Positions 2,916-22,400 of a DNA stretch of 64,000 nucleotides are shown piece after piece. The notes beneath the pieces are model-generated. The model did no database searches. It saw only the letters and a program-made list of their open reading frames with translations, and was not told where the DNA came from. How positions within the stretch are numbered: the stretch's first letter is position 1; each line of letters starts with the position of its first letter. A program made the position numbers and the translations under genes. The stretch is from Seonamhaeicola sp. ML3. GTDB taxonomy: Bacteria; Bacteroidota; Bacteroidia; Flavobacteriales; Flavobacteriaceae. The stretch spans positions 930,001 through 994,000 of the forward strand of contig NZ_CP096884.1 of assembly GCF_023273855.1 (NCBI RefSeq). Direction: 5' to 3'.

Positions 2916-4145
2916 CTATTCGTTTCTTAATGCTACTATTGGTTTAATTCTTGAAGCTTTTCGTGCAGGTAAGTAACCCGCAATCACACCAGAAATTATA
3001 AGAAGTATTGTTGCTCCAACAACTACAGAAGTCTCTACCGATGGATTGGTTATAAAATACGTTTTCAGTCCCGGTCCTACCAAGCTTAAAATTGTCGCTC
3101 CTATTAACAAGCCTATATATCCCGCTAATGAAGTAATTAAAATCGCCTCAAGGAGAATTATGGATACTATAGATCTAGGAGAAGCCCCCAGAGCTTTTCT
3201 TACTCCAAGCTCTTTTGTACGTTCTTTTACTATAAAAACCATAATATTACTTATCCCCATTATTCCCGCTATTAACGTACCCAAACCAATGAACAGGACA
3301 ATAAAATTAAGCACGAACATCATTTGGCTAACATTTTTTGTGCCCTCTGCAAAATTCCGCACTCTTATTGCTCGTTGATCATCTCTAGCTACACCAAATT
3401 TATCTTTGAGCTTCGTTGTTAGAGCGTTCCCAAATTCTATGGCTTGGTTGTAGTCTAATTTAGGATTGTAGGTTAAGTGAATAAAATCTATATAATCGTT
3501 ATTACCATAAATTCTTTGAGCTGTTGTTATTGGTGTATAAATAACCTTTTCTTCATTATCACCCTCATCATCGGAAAAAACACCAACAACCTTGTACGGA
3601 ATTCCATTTAGACTGATATACTTACCAATAGACTCAACACCGGCAAACAAATCTTCGTCTATCGCCTCTCCAATAACGGCTACTTTTGTTCTATTTAATA
3701 AATCTGCATTATTAATGTACCTTCCCTTCTCAACAATGTTGTTTTCTATGTACATATGTTCAGGATGGACAGACCTTACCTGATAGGAATCTTTCTCACC
3801 TTTAAAAGAAGCTTCAACATTCCTGTTAACCTTAGAGGTTATGTATTCAACATCATCTCCAAACTCCTCAAGAATAAAATCGTAGTCTTCGTTTTTAAAC
3901 CTTATTCTTCTACCTGACTGAAATCCTTTATAAGCCTTGGTAGTCCTCCCTGGGAAAACAACGATAGAATTTCTGGCATCTGTACCAAAAAATTCCATGA
4001 AGGTGTTTTCTAAACCATTTGCCAAACCAAACAAGATGGTGAATAACATGATGGCAAAAGCAATGGTAAAACCAGAAAGTAAACTCCTGGTTCTATTTTT
4101 ATTGATACTTTGAAATATTTCCCTCCAAAGGTCTAAATCAAACAT
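2916..4145 (-). CDS. ABC transporter permease, MacB/FtsX type (first permease of the pair)
   Basis: A 409-residue MacB-like permease with the same order of parts as its neighbour: an N-terminal helix (about residues 25-47), a periplasmic MacB_PCD domain (about 48-270), and three C-terminal helices with the coupling loop KERTKELGVRKALGASP. The start ATG at 4143-4145 overlaps the end of the ATPase gene by 8 bases, which implies translational coupling. The two permeases are clearly paralogous but diverged (for example SGRRIRFKNED here versus EGRGVRLTLDD in the other), as expected for subunits that form an asymmetric pair. Confidence 0.9.
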   Translation of the reverse strand: MFDLDLWREIFQSINKNRTRSLLSGFTIAFAIMLFTILFGLANGLENTFMEFFGTDARNSIVVFPGRTTKAYKGFQSGRRIRFKNEDYDFILEEFGDDVEYITSKVNRNVEASFKGEKDSYQVRSVHPEHMYIENNIVEKGRYINNADLLNRTKVAVIGEAIDEDLFAGVESIGKYISLNGIPYKVVGVFSDDEGDNEEKVIYTPITTAQRIYGNNDYIDFIHLTYNPKLDYNQAIEFGNALTTKLKDKFGVARDDQRAIRVRNFAEGTKNVSQMMFVLNFIVLFIGLGTLIAGIMGISNIMVFIVKERTKELGVRKALGASPRSIVSIILLEAILITSLAGYIGLLIGATILSLVGPGLKTYFITNPSVETSVVVGATILLIISGVIAGYLPARKASRIKPIVALRNE

Positions 4146-4839
4146 ACTGCTCTGCTCTTACCTGTGTAATTTTAGCGTCCTCCATAATAACACCATCGCG
4201 CAACCTAACAATACGCTTGCACATGTTGGCGATATCCTCTTCATGGGTTACCATCAAAATGGTTTTACCTTCATCATTTAATTGCTGGATAAACTCCATA
4301 ATCTCGTACGAAGTCTTGGTATCTAAAGCTCCCGTTGGCTCATCTGCTAACAATAACTTAGGATTAGCGGCTAATGCCCTTGCAATAGCAACACGCTGTT
4401 TTTGACCCCCCGAAAGTTCTTTAGGCAAATGGTGAGACCAATCTGCCAGACCAACTTTATCTAAGTGAAATAATGCTTTTTCTTGACGCTCCTTACGTTT
4501 CATGCCTTGGTAATAAAGTGGCAAAGCAACGTTTTCTAAGGCATTTTTGTAATTAATAAGGTTAAAGGACTGAAATATGAAACCCAAAAACTTATTTCTG
4601 TAAACGGCTGCCTTTTTTTCAGTTAAATCTTTTATGGGCAAGCCATCAAGAATATATTCCCCTTCCTCGGCAACATCCAGCATACCTATAATATTCAACA
4701 AGGTAGACTTTCCAGAACCCGAAGACCCCATTATGGCTACCATTTCTCCTTCTTTAACAGAAAGATTAATTCCTTTTAAAACATGTAAATGAGAATCTCC
4801 TATAGGATAGGATTTGTGTAAGTCTTTGATTTCTAACAT
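4138..4839 (-). CDS. ABC transporter ATP-binding protein, MacB/LolD-like
   Basis: A 233-residue nucleotide-binding subunit that powers the MacB-type exporter. Visible motifs are Walker A GSSGSGKS (38-45), Q-loop Q90, signature LSGGQ (142-146) with KQRVAIARAL after it, Walker B LLLADE (162-167) and H-loop in MVTHEEDIA. The protein is a stand-alone NBD, unlike E. coli MacB in which it is fused to the permease. It is the first gene of the five-gene operon; the 88 bp upstream contain no clear promoter consensus and no stem-loop that I can see. The family (MacB, LolD, FtsE) is certain; the cargo is not. Confidence 0.93.
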   Translation of the reverse strand: MLEIKDLHKSYPIGDSHLHVLKGINLSVKEGEMVAIMGSSGSGKSTLLNIIGMLDVAEEGEYILDGLPIKDLTEKKAAVYRNKFLGFIFQSFNLINYKNALENVALPLYYQGMKRKERQEKALFHLDKVGLADWSHHLPKELSGGQKQRVAIARALAANPKLLLADEPTGALDTKTSYEIMEFIQQLNDEGKTILMVTHEEDIANMCKRIVRLRDGVIMEDAKITQVRAEQYV

Positions 4840-4927
4840 CTCTTGGCTGATTATTTAGGTAATAACACTTTGTAGTAAGACTACCAATGCAAAGAAATGT
4901 TACAAAAACTAGGCTAAAAAGTTTTTA

Positions 4928-5146
4928 TTATTTTTTTAACGTGCCGTATTTCTTGTAGATAATAAAAATAATACCTCCAACTAGTAAGTAAGGAATAGCC
5001 ATTAGGTAAACAATACCGTCGTTTATACCCTCTGCAGCACTCTTGGTTTCTTCACTTTCAAGAACCGCTCTACACATGGCACATTGTGCATTACTCTTTA
5101 GAAAAGAGAGCAGAGAAAAAAGAAGAAAGGCCGTTTTATATTTCAT
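4928..5146 (-). CDS. small exported CxxC membrane protein of unknown function
   Basis: A 72-residue protein with a Sec-type leader (KTAFLLFSLLSFLKSNA), followed immediately by QCAMCRAVLES, so a CxxC pair would sit at or near the mature N-terminus in the periplasm. A single transmembrane helix follows (about residues 45-66) and a Lys-rich C-terminus remains in the cytoplasm. I do not recognise a named family. It is the last gene of the run that contains SCO, DUF420 and oxidase subunit genes, 34 bp after the DUF420 gene. A role in copper or thiol handling during oxidase assembly is an inference from that position and from the CxxC pair. Confidence 0.75.
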   Translation of the reverse strand: MKYKTAFLLFSLLSFLKSNAQCAMCRAVLESEETKSAAEGINDGIVYLMAIPYLLVGGIIFIIYKKYGTLKK

Positions 5147-5180
5147 CTTAGAGGTTCTTACGTTTCGATAAGAGCTATAT

Positions 5181-5702
5181 TTAGTAGTAAGGCGAAATCA
5201 TGATATAAACTACAACACCTGTTATAGCCACATAAAGCCAAAGTGGGAATGTTATTTTAGCTATTTTTTTATGCTTTTCAATATTATTGGTAATGGCCCT
5301 TACATAGGTAATAAGCACAAAAGGAATAACCGCAATAGATAATAGTATATGACTTATTAAAATAAAGTAATACACATATTTGATGGGACCTTCTCCAAGA
5401 AATTCGGTGGAATCTGTTGTCATGTGGTGTACAATGTACATTAACAAAAACAGAACAGATAACGCTATGGCAAACTTCATTAAGCGTTCATGACGTGTTA
5501 TATTTTTATTTTTTATTGCAACAAAAGCCAACACTAGAACTAAAGCAGTTACGGCGTTTATCATAGCATATACTGGTGGCAAGAATATGGGGAGCTCTAC
5601 ATCTATTCTAATTCCAAAAAGTGCTGCTACAGCCAATGGAATAATAATTGACAATGCCACTATTAGCTTGTTGTACTTTTTATCGTCTAAAGTTTCTTTC
5701 AT
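5181..5702 (-). CDS. DUF420 family integral membrane protein
   Basis: A 173-residue protein with five hydrophobic segments and little else, matching the size and pattern of DUF420 (YozB/CtaM-like) proteins. The stretch MYIVHHMTTDSTEFLG contains a His pair followed by a short polar loop, typical of this family. Members are commonly encoded beside SCO and cytochrome oxidase genes, and the Staphylococcus homologue CtaM is needed for an active heme-copper oxidase. Here it follows the SCO gene by 35 bp, which fits an oxidase assembly function. The exact molecular activity is not known. Confidence 0.85.
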   Translation of the reverse strand: MKETLDDKKYNKLIVALSIIIPLAVAALFGIRIDVELPIFLPPVYAMINAVTALVLVLAFVAIKNKNITRHERLMKFAIALSVLFLLMYIVHHMTTDSTEFLGEGPIKYVYYFILISHILLSIAVIPFVLITYVRAITNNIEKHKKIAKITFPLWLYVAITGVVVYIMISPYY

Positions 5703-5737
5703 GGTTTAAAGACTTTGCTTTGCACTTAACAACAAAG

Positions 5738-6490
5738 CTATTCGTTTAATAGTTTTTTAATGTCTTCTTTTAAAATACTTATTTGCTCTCTTTCGCCTTC
5801 GTCATTAACTTGTTCATCTTCTGATGTTATTCCTCTGTAATAAACAATAGGATTTCCATCTTCTATTCTAGAACGTATAAATCCGTTTTTATCTATTAAA
5901 GCGAAATTACCGGAATGTTCAAAACCACCTTCAGCATCTTTATTCTCCCCAGCGTAAATATAGAATCCTTTATTAGCCAAATTGTATATTGCCTCTTTGT
6001 CTCCCGTCATTAAATGCCAATTAGGATTGGTAATTCCATAATTATCGGCATAGGCTTTTAACACCTCTGGGGTGTCGTAATCTGGATTTATAGTGAACGA
6101 TGCCACGCCAAAATTTTCGAAATCCTTGAATTCATTTTGAATCTTAACGAGATTCACGTTCATTCTTGGGCAGATAGTCGGGCAGGTGGTAAAGAAAAAT
6201 TCAACAACATAAACGCGACCTTCAAAATCTTTATTGGTTATGGTTTTTCCATGCTGATTGGTAAAACTAAAATCTGGAACTTTTCGTTTTTCCCCAAAAC
6301 TCTCTATAAAGGCTAAATCTGATAGTTTGGAATCTACTGCCTTTTTTTCTTCGGCATAATCACTTCGGCTCTCCTGTCTGGTAATATCGCCTTTGGTAAT
6401 ACGGTCTATTATTCTGGGCACGAATATGATACCGAAAACGAGAATGATAAAAGCTATCCCTATGTACGAATAATTATTTTGCTTGCTCAT
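5738..6490 (-). CDS. SCO1/SenC family copper chaperone for cytochrome c oxidase
   Basis: A 250-residue membrane-anchored periplasmic protein that delivers copper to, or reduces, the CuA site of cytochrome oxidase subunit II. It has an N-terminal anchor (about residues 9-27), then a thioredoxin fold with the copper-binding motif CPTIC (Cys103 and Cys107, in FFTTCPTICPRMN) and the third ligand His192 (GGFEHSGNFALID). All three SCO ligands are present. The gene starts 1 bp after the stop of an upstream gene coding a cysteine-less relative, so the two are probably translated together. The CuA-bearing partner CtaC is encoded about 27 kb to the right. Confidence 0.93.
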   Translation of the reverse strand: MSKQNNYSYIGIAFIILVFGIIFVPRIIDRITKGDITRQESRSDYAEEKKAVDSKLSDLAFIESFGEKRKVPDFSFTNQHGKTITNKDFEGRVYVVEFFFTTCPTICPRMNVNLVKIQNEFKDFENFGVASFTINPDYDTPEVLKAYADNYGITNPNWHLMTGDKEAIYNLANKGFYIYAGENKDAEGGFEHSGNFALIDKNGFIRSRIEDGNPIVYYRGITSEDEQVNDEGEREQISILKEDIKKLLNE

Positions 6491-6491
6491 G

Positions 6492-7208
6492 CTATTCTTC
6501 TATCGGTTTTAAATCGTTCGCTCGCCTTATGGTAGAATTAAATTCTCCTTTTCTTTTCTGCCTGTACTCTGTAAATAGAATCCGCATATCTTCGCTCATC
6601 TTGTTTTTTATTGTAGCAACCTCAATACAGTTGTAGGCGCTTAAGCCATAAACAGGTCGGTCTTTGGCTATTTCATCATCCTCCCTGTCATCAATACGAC
6701 CTCTTTGGTTTAGTTCCTTATCAATTACAAAAACATCATCTGTCGCCAAATCGTTATCTAATGTTGGCACAACTTTTAAGGTGCTGTATAATCTTTTAAT
6801 AGTTTCTGGTTCCCCATAAACAAAATGCCAAAACTTTAAATCCTCGTAGTGACTTATTTCCTGTCTCAGTTTATTTGCCGTAATCTCAGCGCCTGTTGGC
6901 AACACAATCACCACTTGAAACTTTTTAAATCCCTTAAACTTGTCGTAAACCAGTTCTTTTAGATTAGAGGCCGCTGTTGTTTTATTCATGGGATTGTTTC
7001 CAAAGAACCCTAAAACCGTTATATGGTCTTTAAGCTGAATGGGCGTATCGCTATTTGAAGTAAACGCCTTTAATTCAATGACATCTTCATTAACAATATC
7101 CAGTGGTGTATAGTTGTGAGTGGCAGGATAGAGTAGTAACAAAAAGGTTACGGGCAAAAAAAACAATACTACTAAAACTGTATATCTACCTACTTTCTTT
7201 AAATCCAT
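6492..7208 (-). CDS. membrane-anchored thioredoxin-fold protein lacking the SCO cysteines
   Basis: A 238-residue protein counted from the ATG at 7206-7208; an upstream TTG at 7233-7235 would add nine residues but falls inside the T-tract of the upstream terminator, so I reject it. There is one membrane anchor (about residues 10-27), then a region with the strand order of a SCO/thioredoxin fold. Where SCO has FFTTCPTICP, this protein has FFGNNPMNKT (from about residue 68), with no cysteine. It still carries VFVIDKELNQRGRIDDRE, similar to the SCO C-terminal strand. A non-catalytic partner or scaffold for SCO is an inference. The only Cys is in YNCIEVATIKNKMSED. Confidence 0.75.
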   Translation of the reverse strand: MDLKKVGRYTVLVVLFFLPVTFLLLLYPATHNYTPLDIVNEDVIELKAFTSNSDTPIQLKDHITVLGFFGNNPMNKTTAASNLKELVYDKFKGFKKFQVVIVLPTGAEITANKLRQEISHYEDLKFWHFVYGEPETIKRLYSTLKVVPTLDNDLATDDVFVIDKELNQRGRIDDREDDEIAKDRPVYGLSAYNCIEVATIKNKMSEDMRILFTEYRQKRKGEFNSTIRRANDLKPIEE

Positions 7209-7240
7209 TAAACTAGATTTTATAAAACTATGCAAAAATA

Positions 7241-7270
7241 AAAAAGGTGGTTCTTAAAAACCACCTTTTA
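7241..7270 (-). terminator. rho-independent terminator after the oxidase subunit IV gene
   Basis: The inverted repeat 7242-7252 / 7259-7269 (AAAAGGTGGTT ... AACCACCTTTT) forms an 11-bp stem with a 6-base loop, followed on the minus strand by a T-rich tract. It separates the oxidase subunit genes from the SCO/DUF420 part of the cluster. Confidence 0.8.
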
Positions 7271-7297
7271 AACTATATTTTAACAGGTTTCCCTGTG

Positions 7298-7678
7298 TTA
7301 AAAATCTCTTTTTATAAAGCCGTCTTTGTAAACACTAAATACATAACCTCCTTCTTGTAAAAGAATAAAGATTAAATAAATAATCAAGAATATTCCTGTC
7401 CAGACTACAGCACGTCTTAGACCTGCAGTTTCATCGCGCATGTGCATGAAATCCCAAGTAATGTAATACGCCTTAACAATTGTTAGGATAATGAATATCC
7501 AGTTAAGTAATTTCATTCCTAAAAAAGAAACCATTAAGCTTTCTGGCTTAATTATACCCAAAACAACTTCTACAGCTGTTACAATAGACAATAGTATTAG
7601 TACTCCCCAAATTTTTTGGGTATTGCTCTTAAACTTTATTAGACCTCTTAATATTGCTAAATTATGTCCGTGTCCCAT
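7298..7678 (-). CDS. cytochrome c oxidase subunit IV family protein
   Basis: A 126-residue protein with three transmembrane helices (about residues 23-43, 52-72 and 85-108), the pattern of the small prokaryotic COX4/CyoD-like subunit that stabilises subunits I and III. The N-terminus (MGHGH) and the short loop YYITWDFMHMRDE between helices two and three are typical of the Bacteroidota form. It lies 24 bp after the long CoxIII gene and ends at a clear terminator. Assignment rests on topology and context; primary sequence conservation in this family is weak. Confidence 0.85.
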   Translation of the reverse strand: MGHGHNLAILRGLIKFKSNTQKIWGVLILLSIVTAVEVVLGIIKPESLMVSFLGMKLLNWIFIILTIVKAYYITWDFMHMRDETAGLRRAVVWTGIFLIIYLIFILLQEGGYVFSVYKDGFIKRDF

Positions 7679-7702
7679 GATATATCTTAAAATCTATATT
7701 TA

Positions 7703-8686
7703 TTAAACTAGGTAGAAGAATGTAAATACAAATACCCAAACTAAATCTACAAAGTGCCAGTACAATCCAACTTTTTCAACCATCTCGTAGCTCTTACGAC
7801 GTTCGTAAGTTCCTAGTACCACATTAAAGAAGATGATAATATTAATTACCACACCAGAAAATACGTGAAAACCATGGAAACCAGTTATGAAGAAAAAGAA
7901 ATCTGCAAATAAAGGCGACCCGTATTCGTTAGCATGAAGGTTGGCACCTTCAACGATAACTTTTCCGTTTTCTTTTATTTGCTTAATAGATTCAGCTCTC
8001 GATAAAACTGTTTTCTCGCCTTCTTCGTTAATAATTTGTGTTCTTACCAATATATTTTCGTTGGCCTCTAAACCGTGAAGCACTTCGTCTACTGTGTAAG
8101 TTGGCAAGCTGCCTTCAGAAGTAAACCACAAGCCTTTGTCACGCGTGTTTTGCACTCTTTCTTTGTGAGCATCTGCTATTGCAAAATCCCTAAGAGCAAC
8201 CCTTTCACCTTCAGTATCTACAAACTGTAAAATATTACCACCTTTGGTTTGTACAGCGCCATAATCTCCTTTAATGAATGTATTCCATTCCCAAGCCTGA
8301 GAGCCTACGAATATTAAACCTCCTATTATGGTTAAGAACATGTAAATGGTTACTTTTGCTTTGTTCATGTGGTGACCAGCATCTACCGCCAATACCATAG
8401 TTACAGACGACATAATAAGAACAAACGTCATAAATGCCACATAGTACATAGGAGCATCTACACCATGTAAGAAAGGAAAGTGGGTAAACACCTCATCGGC
8501 AATTGGCCATTCTTTGATGAATTTAAACCTTGAAAAACCATAGGCTGCTAAAAAGCCCGAAAATGTTAATGCATCTGAAACGATGAAAAACCACATCATC
8601 ATTTTACCGTAACTCGCCTTTAGCGGCTGGTTACCGCCTCCCCAAGTTTTTCCTTCTGCTTCAGCATTTACAACTGTAGTACTCAT
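7703..8686 (-). CDS. cytochrome c oxidase subunit III with a large internal insertion
   Basis: A 327-residue heme-copper oxidase subunit III. Conserved blocks are MMMWFFIVSDALTF (about 29-42), GFHGFHVFSG (269-278) and the C-terminal YWHFVDLVWVFVFTFFYL. Between helices in the middle of the protein there is a soluble, highly charged insertion of about 115 residues (about 140-255), absent from the neighbouring 193-residue CoxIII protein. It follows that shorter paralogue by a 148-bp gap that holds a promoter-like element (8716-8746). The membrane-embedded part is a confident match; the role of the insertion is unknown. Confidence 0.9.
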   Translation of the reverse strand: MSTTVVNAEAEGKTWGGGNQPLKASYGKMMMWFFIVSDALTFSGFLAAYGFSRFKFIKEWPIADEVFTHFPFLHGVDAPMYYVAFMTFVLIMSSVTMVLAVDAGHHMNKAKVTIYMFLTIIGGLIFVGSQAWEWNTFIKGDYGAVQTKGGNILQFVDTEGERVALRDFAIADAHKERVQNTRDKGLWFTSEGSLPTYTVDEVLHGLEANENILVRTQIINEEGEKTVLSRAESIKQIKENGKVIVEGANLHANEYGSPLFADFFFFITGFHGFHVFSGVVINIIIFFNVVLGTYERRKSYEMVEKVGLYWHFVDLVWVFVFTFFYLV

Positions 8687-8715
8687 ATATAAGGTTGTTA
8701 TTTAAAAAAGTTGCA

Positions 8716-8746
8716 CAAAAATAATCATTTTATTCATGTAACGAAA
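8716..8746 (-). promoter_or_regulatory. Bacteroidota-type promoter for the long coxIII gene
   Basis: On the minus strand TATTTTTG (8716-8723) matches the -7 consensus TAnnTTTG, and TTTC (8743-8746) sits 19 bases upstream in place of the -33 TTTG. It lies 30 bp before the coxIII start in a 148-bp non-coding gap (8687-8834) where I see nothing else. Confidence 0.5.
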
Positions 8747-8834
8747 CAGAACCTCTAAATTTTAAACTATGATAAAAATCAGTTTCAAAAAAATTAGAAA
8801 TACGCTAATTAATTTCGTTAAATTTTAAGAATCC

Positions 8835-9416
8835 TTAACGTACAAAATACAAGAACAAGAATAGGTAAACCCAGAGCACGTCTACAAAGTGCCAAAAAAT
8901 GGCCGACAACTCGAAACCTAGCATTTGCTCTGCTGTATACTTTTGTTTAAAATGATTATAAATTACCACCAATAAACTGATAATACCGGCTGCTACATGC
9001 ATAATATGCACCACTGCAATGAGGTAAATATAAGACATGGTTACATTACTGGTAGGTCCTGTAAAATTGTATCCTAAGTCTATTATTTGCTGAAAGCCCT
9101 TAAATTGAAACACTATAAAGAAAACACCTAAAGTTAAGGTTAACAACAACCATATGGTTGTTGCCGCCCTATTTCCTTGCTTTAAGGTTTTCTTTGCTGC
9201 AATAAAGGCAAAACTGCTAATAATGATAAGCACCGTGCTGGTAATAAAGGCATTTGGCAATTGAAAATCCTTTAACCAATCTGGCCTTGAGCTACTTACC
9301 AAAAAAGCACTGGTCCATCCCATAAAGGACATAATTAACGAAATGATACCGAACCAAAGCATCATTTTTTTTGCCCTAGCTTGCTTTTCTTGAGGTGTTC
9401 CTTGAGTTAAATCCAT
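8835..9416 (-). CDS. cytochrome c oxidase subunit III-like protein (short form)
   Basis: A 193-residue subunit III with five hydrophobic helices. The first conserved block is MMLWFGIISLIMSFMGWTSAF, followed by SRPDWLKDFQLP, and the C-terminus carries the signature FWHFVDVLWVYLFLFLYF. At this size it is the usual compact five-helix form. It starts 2 bp after the stop of the heme O synthase gene, so the two are translationally linked. A second subunit III gene follows; such pairs are usual in Bacteroidota oxidase clusters. Confidence 0.9.
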   Translation of the reverse strand: MDLTQGTPQEKQARAKKMMLWFGIISLIMSFMGWTSAFLVSSSRPDWLKDFQLPNAFITSTVLIIISSFAFIAAKKTLKQGNRAATTIWLLLTLTLGVFFIVFQFKGFQQIIDLGYNFTGPTSNVTMSYIYLIAVVHIMHVAAGIISLLVVIYNHFKQKYTAEQMLGFELSAIFWHFVDVLWVYLFLFLYFVR

Positions 9417-9418
9417 GG

Positions 9419-10405
9419 TTATCTTATAAATTTATCAACTACATATACTATTTGAACAAGTGTTATATAGAGCACACTGGCAAGCATTAATTGCCTGGCC
9501 GCTTTGGCGGTCATTTCCTTGAATAGCTTGACAGCATAACTTAACATTCCTAAACCTAGCGCAAAAACAGTAATAGCCGCTACAACAGATAATTGTAACT
9601 TACCCGTAAACCCAAAAACAGGAATAATAGATACAATAATCGTCCAAATGGTGTACATAATGGTTTGTACCGTTGTACCTTTATCTTGCTTACCTGTAGG
9701 AAGCATTTTAAACCCTGCTTTTTCGTAATCCTCAAATAAAAACCAGCCTATGGCCCAGAAATGCGGAAACTGCCAAAAGAACTGCAGCGCAAATAAAGTT
9801 CCGGGTTCTATCCCAAAGTCATCGGTTGCAGCTACCCAACCCAACATAAACGGTATTGCTCCTGGAATGGCACCCACAAATACTGCAATGGGCGTCATTG
9901 TTTTTAGTGGGGTATAGGCACAGGTATATAAAAATATAGATATGGCACCAAACATTGCTGTTTGTTTGTTTATGGTGTATAGAATTATAATGCCCAGTAT
10001 GGTGAAAATGGAAGAGATTACAAATGCCGAATTCACAGACATTCTACCCGACGGAATTGGCCTGTTTTTAGTACGCTTCATTAAAGCATCTAAATCCTTC
10101 TCTATAATTTGATTGAAGCCGTTGGAAGCACCCACCATAAAATACCCACCAAAAGCAAGTAATATGAGTGTTTGAATATCTATGGTTTCTACACCTAACA
10201 AATAACCAGCAAGCGAGGAGAAAACGACGCTCAATGACAAACGCATTTTTGTAATTTCCTTAAAATCTGAAATTACCGAAGGTGTTGCTACTGAAGATTT
10301 TGACCTACCCAATGCGATATCATGTTTTGCGAGTGCAAAGATACGCCATAATAGCTTTTTGGCAATGGGTTTGTAAAAATAAACCATCATGATTTTAAAA
10401 TCCAT
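9419..10405 (-). CDS. ctaB: heme O synthase (protoheme IX farnesyltransferase)
   Basis: An integral membrane UbiA-family prenyltransferase that attaches a farnesyl group to heme b to make heme O, the precursor of heme A for the aa3 oxidase. The diagnostic motif NGFNQIIEKDLDALMKRTKNR holds the Asp residues that bind diphosphate-Mg; PIPSGRM follows it. The second motif region YEKAGFKMLPTG is also present. About eight or nine helices are visible. I start at the ATG at 10403-10405 (328 residues); the TTG at 10415-10417 is unlikely, and ATGs at 10390 or 10387 are possible because the first 40 residues are poorly conserved in this family. It is the first gene of the oxidase run. Confidence 0.9.
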   Translation of the reverse strand: MDFKIMMVYFYKPIAKKLLWRIFALAKHDIALGRSKSSVATPSVISDFKEITKMRLSLSVVFSSLAGYLLGVETIDIQTLILLAFGGYFMVGASNGFNQIIEKDLDALMKRTKNRPIPSGRMSVNSAFVISSIFTILGIIILYTINKQTAMFGAISIFLYTCAYTPLKTMTPIAVFVGAIPGAIPFMLGWVAATDDFGIEPGTLFALQFFWQFPHFWAIGWFLFEDYEKAGFKMLPTGKQDKGTTVQTIMYTIWTIIVSIIPVFGFTGKLQLSVVAAITVFALGLGMLSYAVKLFKEMTAKAARQLMLASVLYITLVQIVYVVDKFIR

Positions 10406-10440
10406 AGTTTTAAACAAAATGGTGAAATTCTTTTCAACTG

Positions 10441-10510
10441 CAGGTTGTTATTATTGCGAAGACAGGAATCCTAGAGCAAAACTAGATTCCGAAACAAGTG
10501 CGGTACTTTA
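10441..10510. repeat. dispersed intergenic repeat of the flavobacterial type
   Basis: The 242-bp gap 10406-10647 holds a stretch reading GCGAAGACAGGAATC, and AGATTCCGAAACAAGTGCGG downstream of it, with an imperfect inverted relation between GGAATC and GATTCC. I recall similar wording between genes in many flavobacterial genomes. A TAnnTTTG-like octamer (TAGTTTTG on the minus strand, 10477-10484) sits inside it, but it has no good -33 partner. Confidence 0.4.
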
Positions 10511-10585
10511 AAGATTAGGTAATTATATTGAAAAAAGTTTATAAGAACTATAGTATTACATGGCATTCTCCTTTAACTTGAAACT

Positions 10586-10613
10586 AAAAAAGCCACTTTA
10601 AAAAAGTGGCTTT
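10586..10613 (-). terminator. rho-independent terminator after the T9SS sorting-domain gene
   Basis: The inverted repeat 10589-10598 / 10604-10613 (AAAGCCACTT ... AAGTGGCTTT) forms a 10-bp stem with a short A-rich loop and runs into T residues on the minus strand. It is 34 bp beyond the stop of the gene at 10648-11883. Confidence 0.8.
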
Positions 10614-10647
10614 ACAAAAAGAAATAATCTTTACCTTAAATCTATTT

Positions 10648-11883
10648 TTACTCAATTACTATTTGATGGGTTTCCTCTTCACCATTGGCATTAATTTTAA
10701 GAATATATGTGCCCTTCTTGAGCTTTGATACATCAATAAGAGTTTCATCATCCATTTGCCCAGATATCACCAAGTTACCGCTAAAGTCAAAAAGCCTGTA
10801 AGTGTTTACACTTCGAGAACTTGTGACCATAGCACTTCTGTTCATTGCAGAAAACTCAAAAGGGCTACTTGCAAAATCTTTTGAAGTTTGCGTATTCATG
10901 ATGGTTAATGTACTTGATGTTGGATTAGGATAAGCCCTAAACATACCTGGATTACTGCAATCTTGATATGATACAAAATAATGAAACCATGGTGACCAAC
11001 CACAGGAATTTTTAAACCTGATTTCAAATTGGTAGGTTCCGGGGATTAGATTGGGCATAACACCTTCTATGGGATTATTATTAGAAGTTTTTAATGAAGA
11101 AATATAGGTATAAGTTGAACTGCCCCATAACTTAATTTTATACTCATAATTTATGGTACCGTTGGCACCATTTAAACTAAACCTATACCTATTATCGTTA
11201 TGATAAGAGCAAAGATAACCCATAGCCCCTGTGTTAAGGTTATAAAACTCTATAAAACTGGCTAATTGCGGTGCCCCTACCCAAATTTCCTTTTCTATGG
11301 TTTCACTAAAACTACATCGATTACTGGATAAAGTACCTTGTAAAATTAATTTTCCGGTGGAATTTAAGTTATTTGTTGTTAAACTTACCGTTTGAGTATT
11401 GTTCCCATTGAGACTCGCTAAATGACCTCCAGATAAAATTTGCCAAAAATAGCTTTCTGCTCCAGCCGTTAAACTATAATTATTAGTAACACCATTACAC
11501 AAAAAACTATTCCCTGACATATTTATACTAGCTCCACAAGCAAAAGCACAGGACTCTGATACAGGTGTATCGGTAAGCTCAGACATTAACCAATTACTGT
11601 TGTTTAATGTAAATTGGATATGCTGTTCACTTGTTAATTCATTGGTGTAGAAATTATCAAAGGGTATATGCTTGGGAGCTCTAGGTGGACGAGTAGGCGA
11701 ATAGGTCTTAGCTAAATCTGTTGTATTAATTACTTCCTGTCCTTCACCAATATCTAAACTACTAAAAGTAGGTATAAAATTAAATGAGGTTTCTAAAAAG
11801 GCATCTTCTATAGCCTGTGGCAATTGTACACCTAAGGCTTGAATATCATAAATGCCACCACCTGCATTGTCCAATGGCAACAT
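10648..11883 (-). CDS. C-terminal part of a split T9SS cargo hydrolase (T9SS type A sorting domain)
   Basis: A 411-residue frame with no signal peptide. The middle part has Cys-containing, PKD-like beta-sandwich wording (SLTAGAESYFWQILSGG). The C-terminus is a clear type A T9SS sorting domain: YPNPTSSTLTI, LFDFSGNLV, DVSKLKKGTYILKI and final HQIVIE. A protein exported by T9SS needs a Sec leader, which is missing here but is present on the gene just upstream (11944-13782). The two are in the same frame: the upstream stop TAA (11944-11946) is followed by 20 sense codons and then this ATG. It is therefore almost certainly the 3' end of one original gene of about 1044 codons. Unless it is reached by readthrough, this piece would stay in the cytoplasm. 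Confidence 0.8.
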   Translation of the reverse strand: MLPLDNAGGGIYDIQALGVQLPQAIEDAFLETSFNFIPTFSSLDIGEGQEVINTTDLAKTYSPTRPPRAPKHIPFDNFYTNELTSEQHIQFTLNNSNWLMSELTDTPVSESCAFACGASINMSGNSFLCNGVTNNYSLTAGAESYFWQILSGGHLASLNGNNTQTVSLTTNNLNSTGKLILQGTLSSNRCSFSETIEKEIWVGAPQLASFIEFYNLNTGAMGYLCSYHNDNRYRFSLNGANGTINYEYKIKLWGSSTYTYISSLKTSNNNPIEGVMPNLIPGTYQFEIRFKNSCGWSPWFHYFVSYQDCSNPGMFRAYPNPTSSTLTIMNTQTSKDFASSPFEFSAMNRSAMVTSSRSVNTYRLFDFSGNLVISGQMDDETLIDVSKLKKGTYILKINANGEEETHQIVIE

Positions 11884-11943
11884 ATTTGATGAAGAGTATA
11901 CGCTCTTTTCATCTATCAGAGGTTCATGAATGATAATGAAAAA

Positions 11944-13782
11944 TTAAACCTCCTTTCTAATAAATATTTTCCCTTTGTATATCTCTTTTGATTGTTGGTT
12001 GGGTAAACCTTTCAAGTTAAATTGCAGGTGAATATCTGAATCTGTTGTCAAAACGGATGAAACAAGCTTTAATGGATTTATTGAAAATGCATTCAAAACT
12101 GTCAAAATGAAAGCTAATCCTGATTGAAAACCAACCGTATCATTAATATCTAGAAGTGTGGCGTTGTCGGCAAAACCTAATGGCGTACCACATTCTGAGC
12201 CATTGGCAATAGCAATGTTACGTATGCCATTTTGTTGAGGGTAACCCATATTACTGTATTCCGTAGCAAAGCTACTGTGCAATGTATTGGTGTCTATAGC
12301 AACATTCCCACCTGTGCCTTGTAATTGGTAAATCAACATTTGTTGGGCGGCAGGCGTTTGTAACAGTTCTAAGGCATTTTCAAGCTCTCGCACAAATTTT
12401 TTTATATCTACAACATCAACATCAAAAAGGCTAAGAAAGACCGGTATGTTTATGGTTTCCCCAACCAAATGCCTTACCATAGCTTGATACGCCAAAGGCA
12501 CATTAGCTCCTTGATGCGGGGCATCATGGCTTATGTATAGCTTTGTGTCATGCGTTTCACTATTAAGTTCCATGTCGCGCAAGGCATAGCGGGCTATTAA
12601 GCCGCCCATACTCATGCCCAATACCACGTTTTGCTCCGTACTGCTTCCCTTTAAACCGTTAACCCAATCAATAACGGCTTCTACTACATAGGCATTACGT
12701 TGAATATAATCTGTACCGTTTACAAAGTCTATAAATACCAAATCGTAGTCTTCGGCTTCTATAGCATCATTCAAAGTATATAAAACTGCTGGATCTGGGT
12801 CTAAATCAACCTCTAATCCTCCTGGATCATCTCTATCAATTAGACTGCGATAATCAAACCTGCTATCTGGGTCAAAACCTTCCACCACGATTAGGGGCTT
12901 GGTGAGTTGCATATGCCCTGGTGCCAATTCAACGGTAACCAAAGCCGTACCTGCTATACCTTGCCATGTATTACCTGTTATAGGCTGTCTATTAAAAATA
13001 ACATCAGTACCAGTACCATTGAAACGTGCAAAAAGCCCACCCTGAGGAGCTATATAATCCACCCAAATTTTAGAATGACTGTATAACGTTGGCCCACCAC
13101 TATATACAAACTTTACCTTAAGTTCCTTTTCGCCTCCAGAGGTATAGCTTATGGTTTTAACTGCATTAATGGCAACGGTTTGGTAGCCCTGTCCGTTATC
13201 AAAATCTATTTGCAATTGGCTTAAGGTCAATCCAGAATTGGTGTATACCAAACTACTCGGCAGTTTGAAGGTAAATGTATCGCCCTGCAACTCATTTTTT
13301 AAGGGTGCTACACCAAAAATGGTCTTGGTGTCGTAGGGGTTTCTGCCAGATACATCATAGATGCGGTCATTGCTTACCGTAACATCCCCATTGCTTACCG
13401 CATTGGTTTTATATTGTTGGTAATTGTAATATTGTGCTGCCAGTAGCACATCTTCGGTACTATTGGCCTGTTGGGTTTTTAGGTTATCAAACACCACATC
13501 TGGCGCGGTCATATTTTGGGCCACTGTACCCACGCGCATGGTGTAAAGCGAACTGTAAAGGGATTGCCACTGGCTTTTATCCACTAGATTATTGGAACTT
13601 ATAACGCCATTATAGGCTTCTGTCTCATTAAAACGAATGCCAAATTCCTTTAAGTAACCAGTGGTTACCTTGGTTTTATCAATGTTCCCAAAGATGTGTT
13701 GCATACGGTTGTAGTAGTTGTTTTGTGCATTGCCGTAAAAAAAGGCAATACAGAGCAGTGTAAAAACGAGTCGTTTTTTCAT
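11944..13782 (-). CDS. secreted alpha/beta hydrolase (lipase/esterase-like), N-terminal part of a split T9SS cargo
   Basis: A 612-residue protein with a Sec signal peptide (MKKRLVFTLLCIAFFYGNAQ). The first half is beta-rich and unrecognised. The second half is an alpha/beta hydrolase: the nucleophile elbow is GMSMG (VVLGMSMGGLIARYAL, Ser at about residue 392), preceded by VVEGFDPDSRFD and YDLVFIDFVNGTDY, and followed by SHDAPHQGANVPLA. This arrangement resembles lipases and PGAP1-like enzymes acting on esters, but the substrate cannot be read. The stop TAA at 11944-11946 removes the T9SS sorting domain, which continues in the same frame from 11943 on. The truncated product would be exported to the periplasm and probably retained there. 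Confidence 0.8.
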   Translation of the reverse strand: MKKRLVFTLLCIAFFYGNAQNNYYNRMQHIFGNIDKTKVTTGYLKEFGIRFNETEAYNGVISSNNLVDKSQWQSLYSSLYTMRVGTVAQNMTAPDVVFDNLKTQQANSTEDVLLAAQYYNYQQYKTNAVSNGDVTVSNDRIYDVSGRNPYDTKTIFGVAPLKNELQGDTFTFKLPSSLVYTNSGLTLSQLQIDFDNGQGYQTVAINAVKTISYTSGGEKELKVKFVYSGGPTLYSHSKIWVDYIAPQGGLFARFNGTGTDVIFNRQPITGNTWQGIAGTALVTVELAPGHMQLTKPLIVVEGFDPDSRFDYRSLIDRDDPGGLEVDLDPDPAVLYTLNDAIEAEDYDLVFIDFVNGTDYIQRNAYVVEAVIDWVNGLKGSSTEQNVVLGMSMGGLIARYALRDMELNSETHDTKLYISHDAPHQGANVPLAYQAMVRHLVGETINIPVFLSLFDVDVVDIKKFVRELENALELLQTPAAQQMLIYQLQGTGGNVAIDTNTLHSSFATEYSNMGYPQQNGIRNIAIANGSECGTPLGFADNATLLDINDTVGFQSGLAFILTVLNAFSINPLKLVSSVLTTDSDIHLQFNLKGLPNQQSKEIYKGKIFIRKEV

Positions 13783-13816: not shown

Positions 13817-14335
13817 TTAGGGAGTATATTTTACATCGAAACGTCCGTTTGTTATTTTTATATCTTCACAATCATTTGTAACAGTTGAAAATTCAAATGT
13901 TCCTGACAATATTAAGTTCTGACTATCTACATTAGAGAAGGTAATTGAACCCTCATATGCATCCTCAATATCATATTTACATTTATCTAAAACATTGAAG
14001 TTAGTATATTTAGAGAGTTTTACTAAACTGTAAGAAATATTTTCTTCTAAAGGTCCACCAACAAACAATGCAATATCAACATCTATGTCATCATTTGTTA
14101 CTCCCCCCCCTAATTGCAATTGGTTTTGTTGGTATATTGCGGTTATTTTCCTTGTGGTAGAAACCACAACAGCTTCACCATTTACCAAATACCCAAACGT
14201 ATTCTCGCCGGTCTTTGTAGCCAGTGGCAGTTGGTCTATAGGGTCGGTAGAGTTATCATCATCTTTGTTGCAACATGCAGTACTCAGCACAAATAGGCTT
14301 AGAAGTAGGACTGTAAGTAGGTTTAATTTTTTCAT
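13817..14335 (-). CDS. hypothetical exported lipoprotein containing a G8 tract in its gene
   Basis: A 172-residue lipoprotein counted from the ATG at 14333-14335; the TTG seven codons upstream is rejected because the ATG gives a compact signal peptide. The lipobox is LSTAC followed by CNKDDDN, an acidic stretch typical of surface-exposed Bacteroidota lipoproteins. The mature part is beta-rich with the wording NTFGYLVNGEAV, which I associate with DUF6252-type flavobacterial lipoproteins; that match is tentative. A run of eight G (minus strand; C8 at 14103-14110) encodes Gly-Gly-Gly in the mature part. It sits 34 bp upstream of the split hydrolase gene, so they may be co-transcribed. Function unknown. 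Confidence 0.75.
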   Translation of the reverse strand: MKKLNLLTVLLLSLFVLSTACCNKDDDNSTDPIDQLPLATKTGENTFGYLVNGEAVVVSTTRKITAIYQQNQLQLGGGVTNDDIDVDIALFVGGPLEENISYSLVKLSKYTNFNVLDKCKYDIEDAYEGSITFSNVDSQNLILSGTFEFSTVTNDCEDIKITNGRFDVKYTP

Positions 14336-19402: not shown

Positions 19403-22400
19403 TTAATTTCCAAAATTATATCGTAATGTTATACCAGACCTTACCGTAGTTTGGGGAAATGCCGTTGAAATAGCATACTCAGAAAACGCATAATCAAAAT
19501 AAAATATGCCCGTAAGGTTTCTACTGAAGGCATAATCTGCGGTGTACTTTAGGCCCCAAATGGTTTGACCGGAAGTAACTTGATTATTATCTAAATCTAA
19601 GTATCGTATTATCGTTTTGTTATCCCGAACAGAAACATCTGCTTTCATATTTAAATCGCTAACAATACGCTTTTTTGGCCCTGCCAATTTGGAGCGAATT
19701 CGTAAGTCTTTAATACGATATCCGAGACCTATTGTATATTCGTTGCCAAGTACTTCGGTTAATAAATTATTATCGAAACTAAGCGATAACATACGGTCTC
19801 TGGCGACTTCTGCTAAAATCTTTACCGAATTTTTCATTTCGAAATCTATTCGCACTAACGGACTAAAAGATTCGGTTAAATTAACACCTCCAAAAAGACG
19901 TTCGTTTTTAAAATTACCCGATTGATCAAAAGCTTCTTGGGGTTGGCTTGCATAATCTACCCCTGGTACCGGCGCTTCATTATCAAAAGGATCTGTGTTT
20001 AGATTTAAGTTTGTATTAAACTGGTTTATGGTGTAAGACGAACGGTAACCGTGGGTAACGGAAAAACGTCTGAAGCGTTTTTTAAACCACGCAAATTTCA
20101 TAAAACCAGAATATTTCAAGTCCCAGTTAGGAATTGGAATATCCCTGAAAGCACCTGTTTTAACTTTGCCTGCATCCTGCCCAGTATACGCTGCTAAAAA
20201 TGCAGGTAGTAGTACTTTTTGGTTGTTTTTCCCAAAGCCTAGAGGATACCCCTCACTGTCTCTAGCAAAGGTGGAATTTCCATAGAACTCCTCTGCCAAA
20301 CGATCGGCTATCTTAAGCCTATTGTTACTAAACTCTGTAAAAGGCGCAGAACTAATTTCATCACTCTGCTTAAAAGCAGTCTTAATCAAGACTGTAGAGA
20401 TATTAAAATTACCAAAAGTATTTGGTGCTAAGGATTGATACTCTAACTCTCCTGCTATGTTATCTACACGGTAATTTTCGGTGTAATTTTCAAAGTAAGT
20501 TCTATTACTAATGATATCTATCTTTAAATCCTTAACAGGTTCCAAACTGGCAGAAACATCTATTTGTTTGGTATGTGTAGCTGTATACTGTTGGTTAAAC
20601 GCATCGAAAACGGTTAACCAGCCTTTTCGAGCGGCCAAAAATCTCACATCGCTTTGGCTACCAAATGTAAAGCCTAAAGTAGGCTTAAACGTACCTATAA
20701 ACCCTGGTGTTTGCGTAAAACCAGGCAAGAAGGTTCCGTTATTTTCAGAATAACGTATTTGCATTCTTTTAATGCTTGTAAGCAATCCTATACCGGCATT
20801 TAAAATCTTAGTAGCAGTTTGGTTTTTAACTTTTGGTTTTGGTTTCTTTTTTACCCCTGGACCTCCTGGTGGCGTTCCTCCTTGAGTAACTCTACTTCTG
20901 GCTCTTTTTATTGGCTTTTTTACCAAGCCAATATACCTATAGAACTTGTTCATGTCTAACGATGCATTTAAATCATGAATATTAGAGTTTTGAACTGTAT
21001 GTGCCGGTGTACCTATACCGCCATCTGCAATGGGTCTTTCATAAAAATCCGAGCCTTTATCCCATTGAAAAGCACCTGTGTATTGATATGTCGCATCAAT
21101 AAAACTGAACGCTGGAATTTTCTTTAAAGGCAATTGGTAGATTATTCCTAAATTTTGACTTTGTCTATTAGGATCACCAAGATCCAATAAACCGTCCCAA
21201 ACATCAAGTGTTTCATCTTGTTCTCCCCTAATTAAATCGTTGTCCTTAAAATAATTACGTACTATATTATTGTTTGCAGCCGTAAAATTAAGCTGTAGGG
21301 CATCTGTTAAGTTATAGTTGATAGTATACTGAAAATCGAAGGTGTAATTTCTCCTAAACAGTTCTTCTACCGCTATATTATTACCCGTTAAATCAACCTC
21401 TCTAAACTTTTGTGTATTAAACTGTCGGTTGATGTCTGTATTTATTGCCACACTCGATGGTAATAAATTAAAGTTCATGTCTTTTAAGAATTTCCAGTAG
21501 CGCCCCGTAAATAAGGAATCGTTTTTCTTAAAAGGTTCCACTTTAACCGGATTAAAATTGAAGGCATAATTCGCCCCCATTCTTACGGTTTTATTTACCG
21601 AGTTCTCTATTTCGAAATCCCGATGCTCCACTTTATTATAAGAGTAATTGAGTGTTAGATTTTCTACATCGTAAAAACGCGGTGTTTTTTCTGTTGTCCT
21701 CGTTTTCCTAACCCCTATAAAATTGATACTCTGGCGCTTTGTATAATCTTCAGATTGTTGTTTAACGGTTTCTCTTTCCTCGGCACTATTAGCCGCTGCC
21801 AATCGAGACTCTAAAGTTAAATCCTTATAAAACTGATCGTATTTTGGCGTAATAAGTTCTTCGCTTTGCGCATAATTAAATGGTACTTGAACACCCCATT
21901 TTTTTGGTAATAGCTGCCCAACTTGAACATTAGTGACTACATCGTATTGTTTTATATCTTCTAAACTACGCTGAGTTGGGCCTTGCTCAATCCCACCAAA
22001 ACCAGAGGTACTTTGCCTACCCGTAGCACTAATGTTTGCAAAATCAGCAATATTGGTATCCATACTTACCACAGCTGCCCAACCACCTTCATTATCCATA
22101 TCGGATAAACGCAATTCGTTGAACCAAACTTCGGCACAAACATCATTTCTACTGGTGGCATTCTTTACACCAACCATCAAGGTTCTAATATCTCCAAAGT
22201 TAGGATTACCCTTTATCCCTATTCTTTGCTGTCCGGTAACATACCCCGAAAAAGCATCGTTTACCAATACCAAATCATTACCAACCACATCGTAAAACGT
22301 GGGGTCTTCGTCTCCTAGAGTTCCGTCGGAAATCCCCTGTGATTTTATCCTACCTAGAAGTTCTATAGGTAAATTGATTTCATTGACTTCAGGCCAAAGC

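What the first reader, a model, noticed from the sequence alone, without database searches (positions are those of the whole stretch)
11944..11946. In-frame stop splits a T9SS-secreted hydrolase from its sorting domain
The TAA at 11944-11946 ends the 612-codon hydrolase frame, which has a signal peptide. After it the same frame stays open for 20 codons and then enters the ATG of a 411-codon frame that has no signal peptide but a complete T9SS type A sorting domain. Each half lacks what the other half has. The joined protein of about 1044 residues would be a normal T9SS cargo. The stop is therefore a point mutation, a sequencing error, or, less likely, a site of readthrough that would yield a periplasmic short form and a surface long form.
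Basis: partly seen in the sequence, partly recalled or inferred. Interest (0 to 1): 0.7.

Follow-up and report, generated by a model that had tools for sequence, protein, structure and literature searches.

The report
Broken lipase-like gene beside its partner
A secreted enzyme gene of a flavobacterium carries a stop codon that probably cuts off the end of its catalytic part, and the gene belongs to an enzyme-plus-lipoprotein pair whose history looks like that of bacterial weapons and their antidotes, though this has not been tested.

Summary
A TAA at 11944-11946 (minus strand) ends a 612-codon frame; the same frame then stays open for 431 codons, ending in a T9SS type A sorting domain. In relatives this is one protein: 14 of 14 loci read at the junction, and 29 of 29 aligned open frames, have no stop there. 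Best reading: a nonsense mutation. Sequencing error needs reads to exclude. Nothing supports readthrough.

One correction: the stop probably does not separate enzyme from sorting domain. About 120 residues after it are conserved like the enzyme and hold a probable catalytic His.

The context is the interest. A surface-type lipoprotein (Riean_0653 family) lies directly upstream. Elsewhere it precedes this hydrolase, forms polymorphic tandem arrays, shows transfer between genera, and persists where the hydrolase is truncated or absent. The hydrolase is broken in 12 of 34 lipoprotein-linked copies and 0 of 36 unlinked homologues. This resembles an effector-immunity pair exported by T9SS. Function is inferred; structure prediction could not be run.

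The parts
11944..13782 (-). Upstream piece of the interrupted hydrolase (612 codons + TAA): signal-peptide-like start (by eye), N-terminal region, alpha/beta-hydrolase-like core with GMSMGG
   Evidence: sub-threshold PGAP1 match 19.4 bits (cut-off 24.3); conserved Ser and Asp
11944..11946 (-). In-frame TAA; sense codon in all relatives examined
12610..12612 (-). Ser N391 of GMSMGG, probable nucleophile
   Evidence: 29/29 linked-set rows, 36/36 unlinked homologues; role inferred
12523..12525 (-). Asp N420, invariant
   Evidence: 29/29 and 36/36; role inferred
11584..11943 (-). About 120 residues after the stop that are conserved like the enzyme core
   Evidence: identity profile
11620..11622 (-). 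His C108, probable catalytic His, lost from the short product
   Evidence: 27/29 and 34/36; role inferred; two other conserved His (N411, N423) lie before the stop
10648..11943 (-). Downstream piece, 431 codons + stop, no signal peptide seen by eye: end of the conserved core, PKD-like region (11311-11523, below cut-off), T9SS type A sorting domain (10654-10932)
13817..14335 (-). Partner lipoprotein gene (172 aa, NF052634 Riean_0653 family), intact, 34 bases upstream of the hydrolase start; mature start C-N-K-D-D-D fits a surface lipoprotein export signal
   Evidence: (133.3 bits, cut-off 57)

Best explanation
The stop is a lineage-specific inactivating nonsense mutation in a T9SS-exported alpha/beta-hydrolase (lipase/phospholipase-like). 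Shown: relatives encode one protein, and the frame is broken at this site only here. Inferred: the short product lacks the catalytic His and the sorting domain and the rest has no export signal, so neither piece works. The gene is one half of a lipoprotein-hydrolase pair that evolves like an effector and its immunity protein. The most likely mechanism is that the hydrolase is exported by T9SS and attacks the envelope of neighbouring cells, while the surface-directed lipoprotein binds the enzyme and protects (and perhaps first activates) its own side. The window genome keeps the lipoprotein and has lost the enzyme, a state seen repeatedly in relatives.
For: Junction open in 14 of 14 loci and 29 of 29 aligned open frames. 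Conservation runs past the stop. Hydrolase directly after the lipoprotein, same strand, in 18 of 40 lipoprotein regions of the family sample; 4 hold only hydrolase fragments, 17 none (one of these, L108, cut by its contig end), 1 has reversed order. Lipoprotein ends 57% identical, middle 26% (496 pairs). Two lipoprotein types are 92-93% identical in DNA between genera whose control gene is 59-61% identical; G353 keeps the lipoprotein of a pair that is intact in G410 but only about 71 codons of the hydrolase. Hydrolase broken in 12 of 34 linked copies against 0 of 36 unlinked homologues (Fisher 5e-5); without the window, which was chosen for being broken, 11 of 33. Acidic pair after the lipobox Cys in 28 of 31 lipoproteins scored, as in known surface export signals (PMC5080379, passages). 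SprA T9SS translocon gene intact in the window. Precedent for a lipoprotein that both neutralises and activates a phospholipase: Tli/Tle (PMC10294624, part 1 of 2 read).
Against: No toxicity, immunity or lipase activity has been shown for either protein. In Riemerella anatipestifer, Riean_0653 insertions greatly reduce hemolysis and a Riean_0653 plasmid restores it (PMC7881567, passages), which fits an accessory or activator role better than pure immunity; whether a hydrolase lies beside Riean_0653 was not tested. In 16 genomes outside the family reached through the lipoprotein, 16 of 16 loci lack the hydrolase (L232 is cut by its contig end), so the lipoprotein may have other partners. The adjacent lipoprotein tracks the hydrolase core (rho 0.80) only modestly better than a random one of the same array (mean 0.69; 52 of 500 draws as high), and shared ancestry was not removed. 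L002 (62% identical) has no lipoprotein within 1.5 kb upstream. A second sample gave 0 broken of 5 linked copies. Two conserved His lie before the stop (N411, N423) and the last 60-residue bin before it is only 36-50% identical, so the catalytic assignment is not certain.
Confidence: 0.55

Rival explanations
1. The lipoprotein is a dedicated folding, activating or anchoring partner of a nutritional or host-acting lipase, not an immunity protein; tandem copies and breakage reflect gene turnover.
For: Riean_0653 is needed for full hemolysis but is not itself hemolytic (PMC7881567, passages); order is lipoprotein then hydrolase in 18 of 18 linked regions of the family sample.
Against: Does not readily explain many lipoproteins without any hydrolase, retention of lipoprotein beside hydrolase fragments, or the polymorphic middle.
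Confidence: 0.3
2. The TAA is a sequencing or assembly error and the gene is intact.
For: No other disruption in 431 codons downstream; all relatives examined have a sense codon.
Against: One-contig, 99.91% complete genome; hydrolases of this linked group are broken in other genomes too; the clean downstream frame only bounds the age to about 59 neutral substitutions, 4.6% of sites.
Confidence: 0.15
3. Programmed readthrough yields a short and a long form.
For: Downstream frame is open and coding.
Against: Stop in 0 of 29 relatives at this column; no tRNA for UAA among the 39 found; the stop seems to lie inside the enzyme core.
Confidence: 0.03
4. Two genuinely separate genes.
For: Two relatives (L107 second copy, L112) have a separate N-terminal piece.
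Against: Those splits lie near profile positions 246-278, not at 616; relatives are fused at this junction.
Confidence: 0.02

Closest known systems
Type VI secretion phospholipase effectors Tle with lipoprotein immunity Tli
   Same: Lipase-like enzyme beside a lipoprotein; immunity that can also be required for activity (PMC10294624, part 1 of 2 read); outer membrane lipoprotein immunity Tli3 (PMC9860674, search listing with start of abstract only)
   Different: Here a signal-peptide-like start plus T9SS sorting domain instead of T6SS; lipoprotein of the Riean_0653 type; no activity shown; sequence relation to Tle/Tli not tested
Riean_0653 family (NF052634)
   Same: Window lipoprotein 133.3 bits, cut-off 57
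   Different: Known to me only from hemolysis mutants in Riemerella (PMC7881567, passages); no hydrolase partner is named in the passages seen
TANFOR polymorphic toxins of Bacteroidetes
   Same: Hypothesised T9SS substrates with adjacent immunity genes (PMC7073777, passages)
   Different: Those carry varied C-terminal toxins such as the BaCT DNase; here the enzyme core is conserved and the T9SS tail varies
rAID orphan immunity arrays of Bacteroidales
   Same: Arrays of divergent orphan immunity genes (PMC12247911, abstract)
   Different: Those answer T6SS effectors; recombinase association was not examined here

Membership tests
T9SS type A cargo | C-terminal type A sorting domain | tested here: met
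   43.9 bits vs cut-off 27; 31.5 vs 23
T9SS type A cargo | Signal peptide and sorting domain on one polypeptide | tested here: not met
   Separated by the TAA in this genome; one open frame in relatives
T9SS type A cargo | Sec signal peptide | not testable with these tools
   Only read by eye
PGAP1-like alpha/beta hydrolase | Curated Pfam score | tested here: inconclusive
   Window 19.4 bits, below 24.3; relative L064 26.3, above it; L062 24.0, below
PGAP1-like alpha/beta hydrolase | Ser in GxSxG and a later catalytic His | tested here: inconclusive
   Ser 29/29 and 36/36; candidate His C108 27/29 and 34/36, after the stop; conserved His N411 and N423 before it; no structure
PGAP1-like alpha/beta hydrolase | Fold | not tested
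   Structure prediction busy at all 22 attempts
Riean_0653 family lipoprotein | NF052634 score | tested here: met
   133.3 bits vs 57
Effector-immunity pair | Conserved adjacency of the two genes | tested here: met
   18 of 40 family lipoprotein regions, lipoprotein then hydrolase on one strand; 1 region (L137) reversed; 0 of 16 loci reached through the lipoprotein outside the family
Effector-immunity pair | Orphan immunity genes and polymorphism | tested here: met
   17 of 40 regions without hydrolase (L108 cut by contig end) and 4 with fragments only; ends 57% vs middle 26% identity
Effector-immunity pair | Enzyme toxic, lipoprotein protective | not testable with these tools
   Needs experiment
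Tle/Tli | T6SS delivery and sequence homology | not tested
   Not searched
Programmed readthrough gene | Stop conserved at the site | tested here: not met
   0 of 29 relatives

The most novel reading that the evidence does not exclude
T9SS of Bacteroidota delivers a large family of lipolytic antibacterial enzymes, each neutralised by a surface lipoprotein; species collect these lipoproteins by horizontal transfer into orphan-immunity arrays and discard the enzyme, and the window shows a recent case of such disarming.
Probability: 0.35. Interest if true: 0.8.

Novelty: new variant of a known kind. Interest (0 to 1): 0.45.

Why it matters
As a stop codon it is an ordinary gene-inactivating event. 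As a pointer it matters more: the TANFOR paper offers a role of T9SS in competition between bacteria as a hypothesis (PMC7073777, passages), and a 2023 review of T9SS effectors has no occurrence of antibacterial, interbacterial or competition in its main text (PMC10202324, term search). If the pair is an effector and its immunity protein, it gives named genes with which to test that role, and could explain why a Riean_0653-type lipoprotein affects hemolysis.

Tried and rejected
Considered and rejected: two ancestral separate genes (relatives fused); readthrough (no shared stop, no tRNA for UAA; that UAA followed by U is a strong terminator is recalled); restart just after the stop from the AAGGAGG before it (the first in-frame ATG is 20 codons on, and the same letters occur in the intact relative L005 as coding sequence). 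For the frameshifts in L066, L067, L068, L070 and L126 I looked by eye for long single-base runs and saw none. The lipoprotein profile gave no convincing solved structure (best E 0.17); the hydrolase profile gave 5 chains at E 0.01 or better, all with their best stretch within positions 869-1043, the Ig-like and sorting part. Papers: 0 for DUF6252, 0 for orphan immunity with phospholipase, lipoprotein and tandem; the library lacks most subscription journals.

Limits of the counts. Of 63 family genomes with the lipoprotein over cut-off, which include the window's own, I fetched 36 others, those scoring about 74 bits or more, as 40 regions. One search added 5 weaker ones of the 63 (G059, G320, G033, G226, G079), one with its best match below cut-off (G046) and a further region of G337; none of these 7 regions had the hydrolase. 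L129, L140 and L109 appear to be the same genomes as L061, L062 and L063 (equal contig lengths) and were counted once; L004 and L005 likewise repeat L118 and L111. The first linked set (29 copies) mixes loci reached through the lipoprotein with loci reached through the hydrolase (window, L003, L064-L070, L178). The 36 unlinked controls were picked from the matches listed, which favours long open frames, and 'unlinked' means no lipoprotein in the fetched flanks, mostly 2-4 kb. In the listed part one further hydrolase match outside the linked loci carries stops (G456, 2 TAA); its linkage was not tested. The window was chosen because it is broken: without it, 11 of 33 linked copies are broken. 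Two of the 12 (L107 second copy, L112) might be natural splits. L137 (lipoprotein weak and downstream) and L002 (no lipoprotein) were left out. G184:C60 (1643-aa open frame with four lipoproteins upstream) was found late and is not in the count. The lipobox count used the wrong Cys and was replaced, where one of 32 rows was not scored.

Full report
Observation. On the minus strand a 612-codon frame (11944-13782) ends at TAA 11944-11946; the same frame continues for 431 codons to 10648, its first ATG lying 20 codons after the stop. The upstream piece has a sub-threshold PGAP1-like hydrolase match (19.4 bits, cut-off 24.3), the downstream piece a sub-threshold PKD-like match and Por_Secre_tail (43.9 bits, cut-off 27). 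The signal-peptide-like start of the first piece and its absence from the second were judged by eye. The window sits in a one-contig genome of 3.47 Mb.

Relatives. Searching the pieces apart in 197 related genomes and the upstream piece in the named species collection gave 14 loci in which both pieces match one after the other; 14 of 14 have a sense codon where the window has TAA. The nearest is Jejuia pallidilutea (73% over the upstream piece). In a wider alignment 29 of 29 open frames from relatives, including ones broken elsewhere, have no stop at this column; 21 align on both sides of it and 8 are diverged there. A full-length profile of intact relatives, run over 395 family genomes, found 10 genomes with end-to-end matches above 1,000 bits: 8 open, the window genome with one TAA, and G442 with one TAA at another place. 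The ancestral state is therefore one protein.

Where the stop falls. Identity to nine close relatives in 40-residue bins is 42-72% over the first 120 residues after the stop and then 3-48% through the Ig-like and sorting part; before the stop, 60-residue bins are 32-91%, the last one only 36-50%. In 29 rows of the linked set and 36 unlinked homologues aligned to the profile, Ser N391 and Asp N420 are invariant, and His C108, the only His of the downstream piece that passes the 80% filter, is present in 27 of 29 and 34 of 36; two His before the stop, N411 and N423, also pass. I infer that C108 is the catalytic His, because it is the last shared one, and that the short product is an incomplete hydrolase. 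This corrects the title of the finding, but it needs a structure; prediction was busy at all 22 attempts.

Readthrough and error. No relative examined shares the stop. All 39 tRNA genes found in the genome were given an anticodon by ARAGORN, and none reads UAA. The downstream frame has no second lesion; since 4.9% of single changes there would make a stop, about 59 neutral substitutions (4.6% of sites) is the 95% bound on the age. The stop is thus recent, or an error; reads would decide.

The partner. A 172-residue lipoprotein gene (13817-14335) lies 34 bases upstream. It belongs to NF052634, Riean_0653 family (133.3 bits, cut-off 57), and weakly to DUF6252 (20.1 bits, below the 27.2 cut-off). 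A search of its own genome with it found no second copy at E 0.1. Its mature start C-N-K-D-D-D fits the optimal C-X-K-(D/E)2-X surface export signal of Capnocytophaga (PMC5080379, passages); 28 of 31 scored family members carry an acidic pair there. In Riemerella anatipestifer four insertion mutants of Riean_0653 (three sites) have greatly reduced hemolysis, the gene on a plasmid restores it in the mutant tested, and the purified protein is not hemolytic (PMC7881567, passages).

The pair across Bacteroidota. The lipoprotein is over cut-off in 63 of 395 family genomes and, at E 1e-15 or better, in 26 of 392 phylum-wide genomes. Of 40 fetched family regions (36 genomes), 18 have the hydrolase directly after the last lipoprotein on the same strand, 4 have only hydrolase fragments, 17 have none (L108 is cut by its contig end), and 1 has reversed order. 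Arrays reach six lipoproteins (L067). After 20 of the 21 regions lacking a full hydrolase the next genes look unrelated by eye (L108 had no sequence left; no family search was run on them); in L120 they look like the same cytochrome-oxidase-region genes that follow the window pair (names recalled). Hydrolase-directed searches find linked pairs outside the family too: a Flammeovirgaceae assembly (L068), a Hymenobacter plasmid (NZ_CP053909.1), and, without sorting-domain match and with only a distant lipoprotein (E 4.8e-9), a mobilizable Bacteroides ovatus plasmid (NZ_CP041396.1). But 16 of 16 loci reached through the lipoprotein in genomes outside the family lack the hydrolase (L232 is cut by its contig end). 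Within the window's genus the hydrolase is in 2 of 7 genomes, and among the other six the lipoprotein is over cut-off in two, one of them without the hydrolase: a patchy distribution.

Signs of an effector-immunity history. (1) Lipoprotein ends average 57% identity, the middle 26% (496 pairs); the middle of the adjacent lipoprotein tracks the hydrolase core (rho 0.80, 0 of 500 permutations as high) and less its tail (0.26), although a random lipoprotein of the same array does nearly as well (mean 0.69; 52 of 500 as high). (3) Linked hydrolases are broken in 12 of 29 copies of the first set (stops in the window and L107; frameshifts or deletions in L066, L067, L068, L070, L112, L123, L126, L132; a transposase-like insertion, by eye, in L178; a lipoprotein between the halves of the second L107 copy) and 0 of 5 in a second set, 12 of 34 together, against 0 of 36 homologues with no lipoprotein nearby (Fisher 5e-5; caveats in Tried and rejected).

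Mechanism. Shown: linkage, polymorphism, transfer, orphaning, breakage, and a SprA translocon gene in the window (2687.8 bits over nearly the whole model). Inferred: T9SS exports the enzyme, which damages envelopes of competitors; the surface lipoprotein binds and restrains it, and may also activate it, as Tli does for Tle (PMC10294624, part 1 of 2 read), which would reconcile the Riemerella phenotype. Against a dedicated immunity role stand the lipoprotein loci without hydrolase outside the family, and L002, a 62% identical hydrolase with no lipoprotein within 1.5 kb upstream, though another hydrolase of that genome has four.

Verdict. The stop is real in the sequence and ordinary in kind: a recent inactivation, most likely a mutation. 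What it breaks is a candidate weapon of a kind that my searches of the held library did not find described (term search of one review), and that is the part worth an experiment.

Noticed in passing
window 19403-26701 (-): SprA/Sov T9SS outer membrane translocon in one open frame (TIGR04189, 2687.8 bits), so export by T9SS is plausible in this genome.
   Followed up: partly
L107 (G442) 4269-12294: A linked hydrolase with its own single in-frame TAA at 5421-5423, followed by a second hydrolase whose halves are separated by a lipoprotein gene.
   Followed up: partly
L178 (G471) 3186-4449: A transposase-like gene (by eye) lies between the two parts of the linked hydrolase.
   Followed up: partly
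L064 4995-8126 and L067 5333-8164: Hydrolase cores 90% identical but the last part of the T9SS tails only 23%: the tail looks swapped or very fast evolving.
   Followed up: no
L216 (NZ_CP041396.1) 4288-8126: Mobilizable Bacteroides ovatus plasmid with a hydrolase relative whose profile match ends before the sorting domain, and a lipoprotein-like gene directly upstream.
   Followed up: partly
L115 (G454) 8851-11438: Three similar hydrolase-core fragments (profile about 263-403) alternating with lipoproteins.
   Followed up: no
G184:C60:36184-40230: Four tandem lipoproteins (two over cut-off) upstream of a hydrolase in a 1643-aa frame, while the G184 hydrolase closer to the window's (L002) has none nearby.
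   Followed up: no
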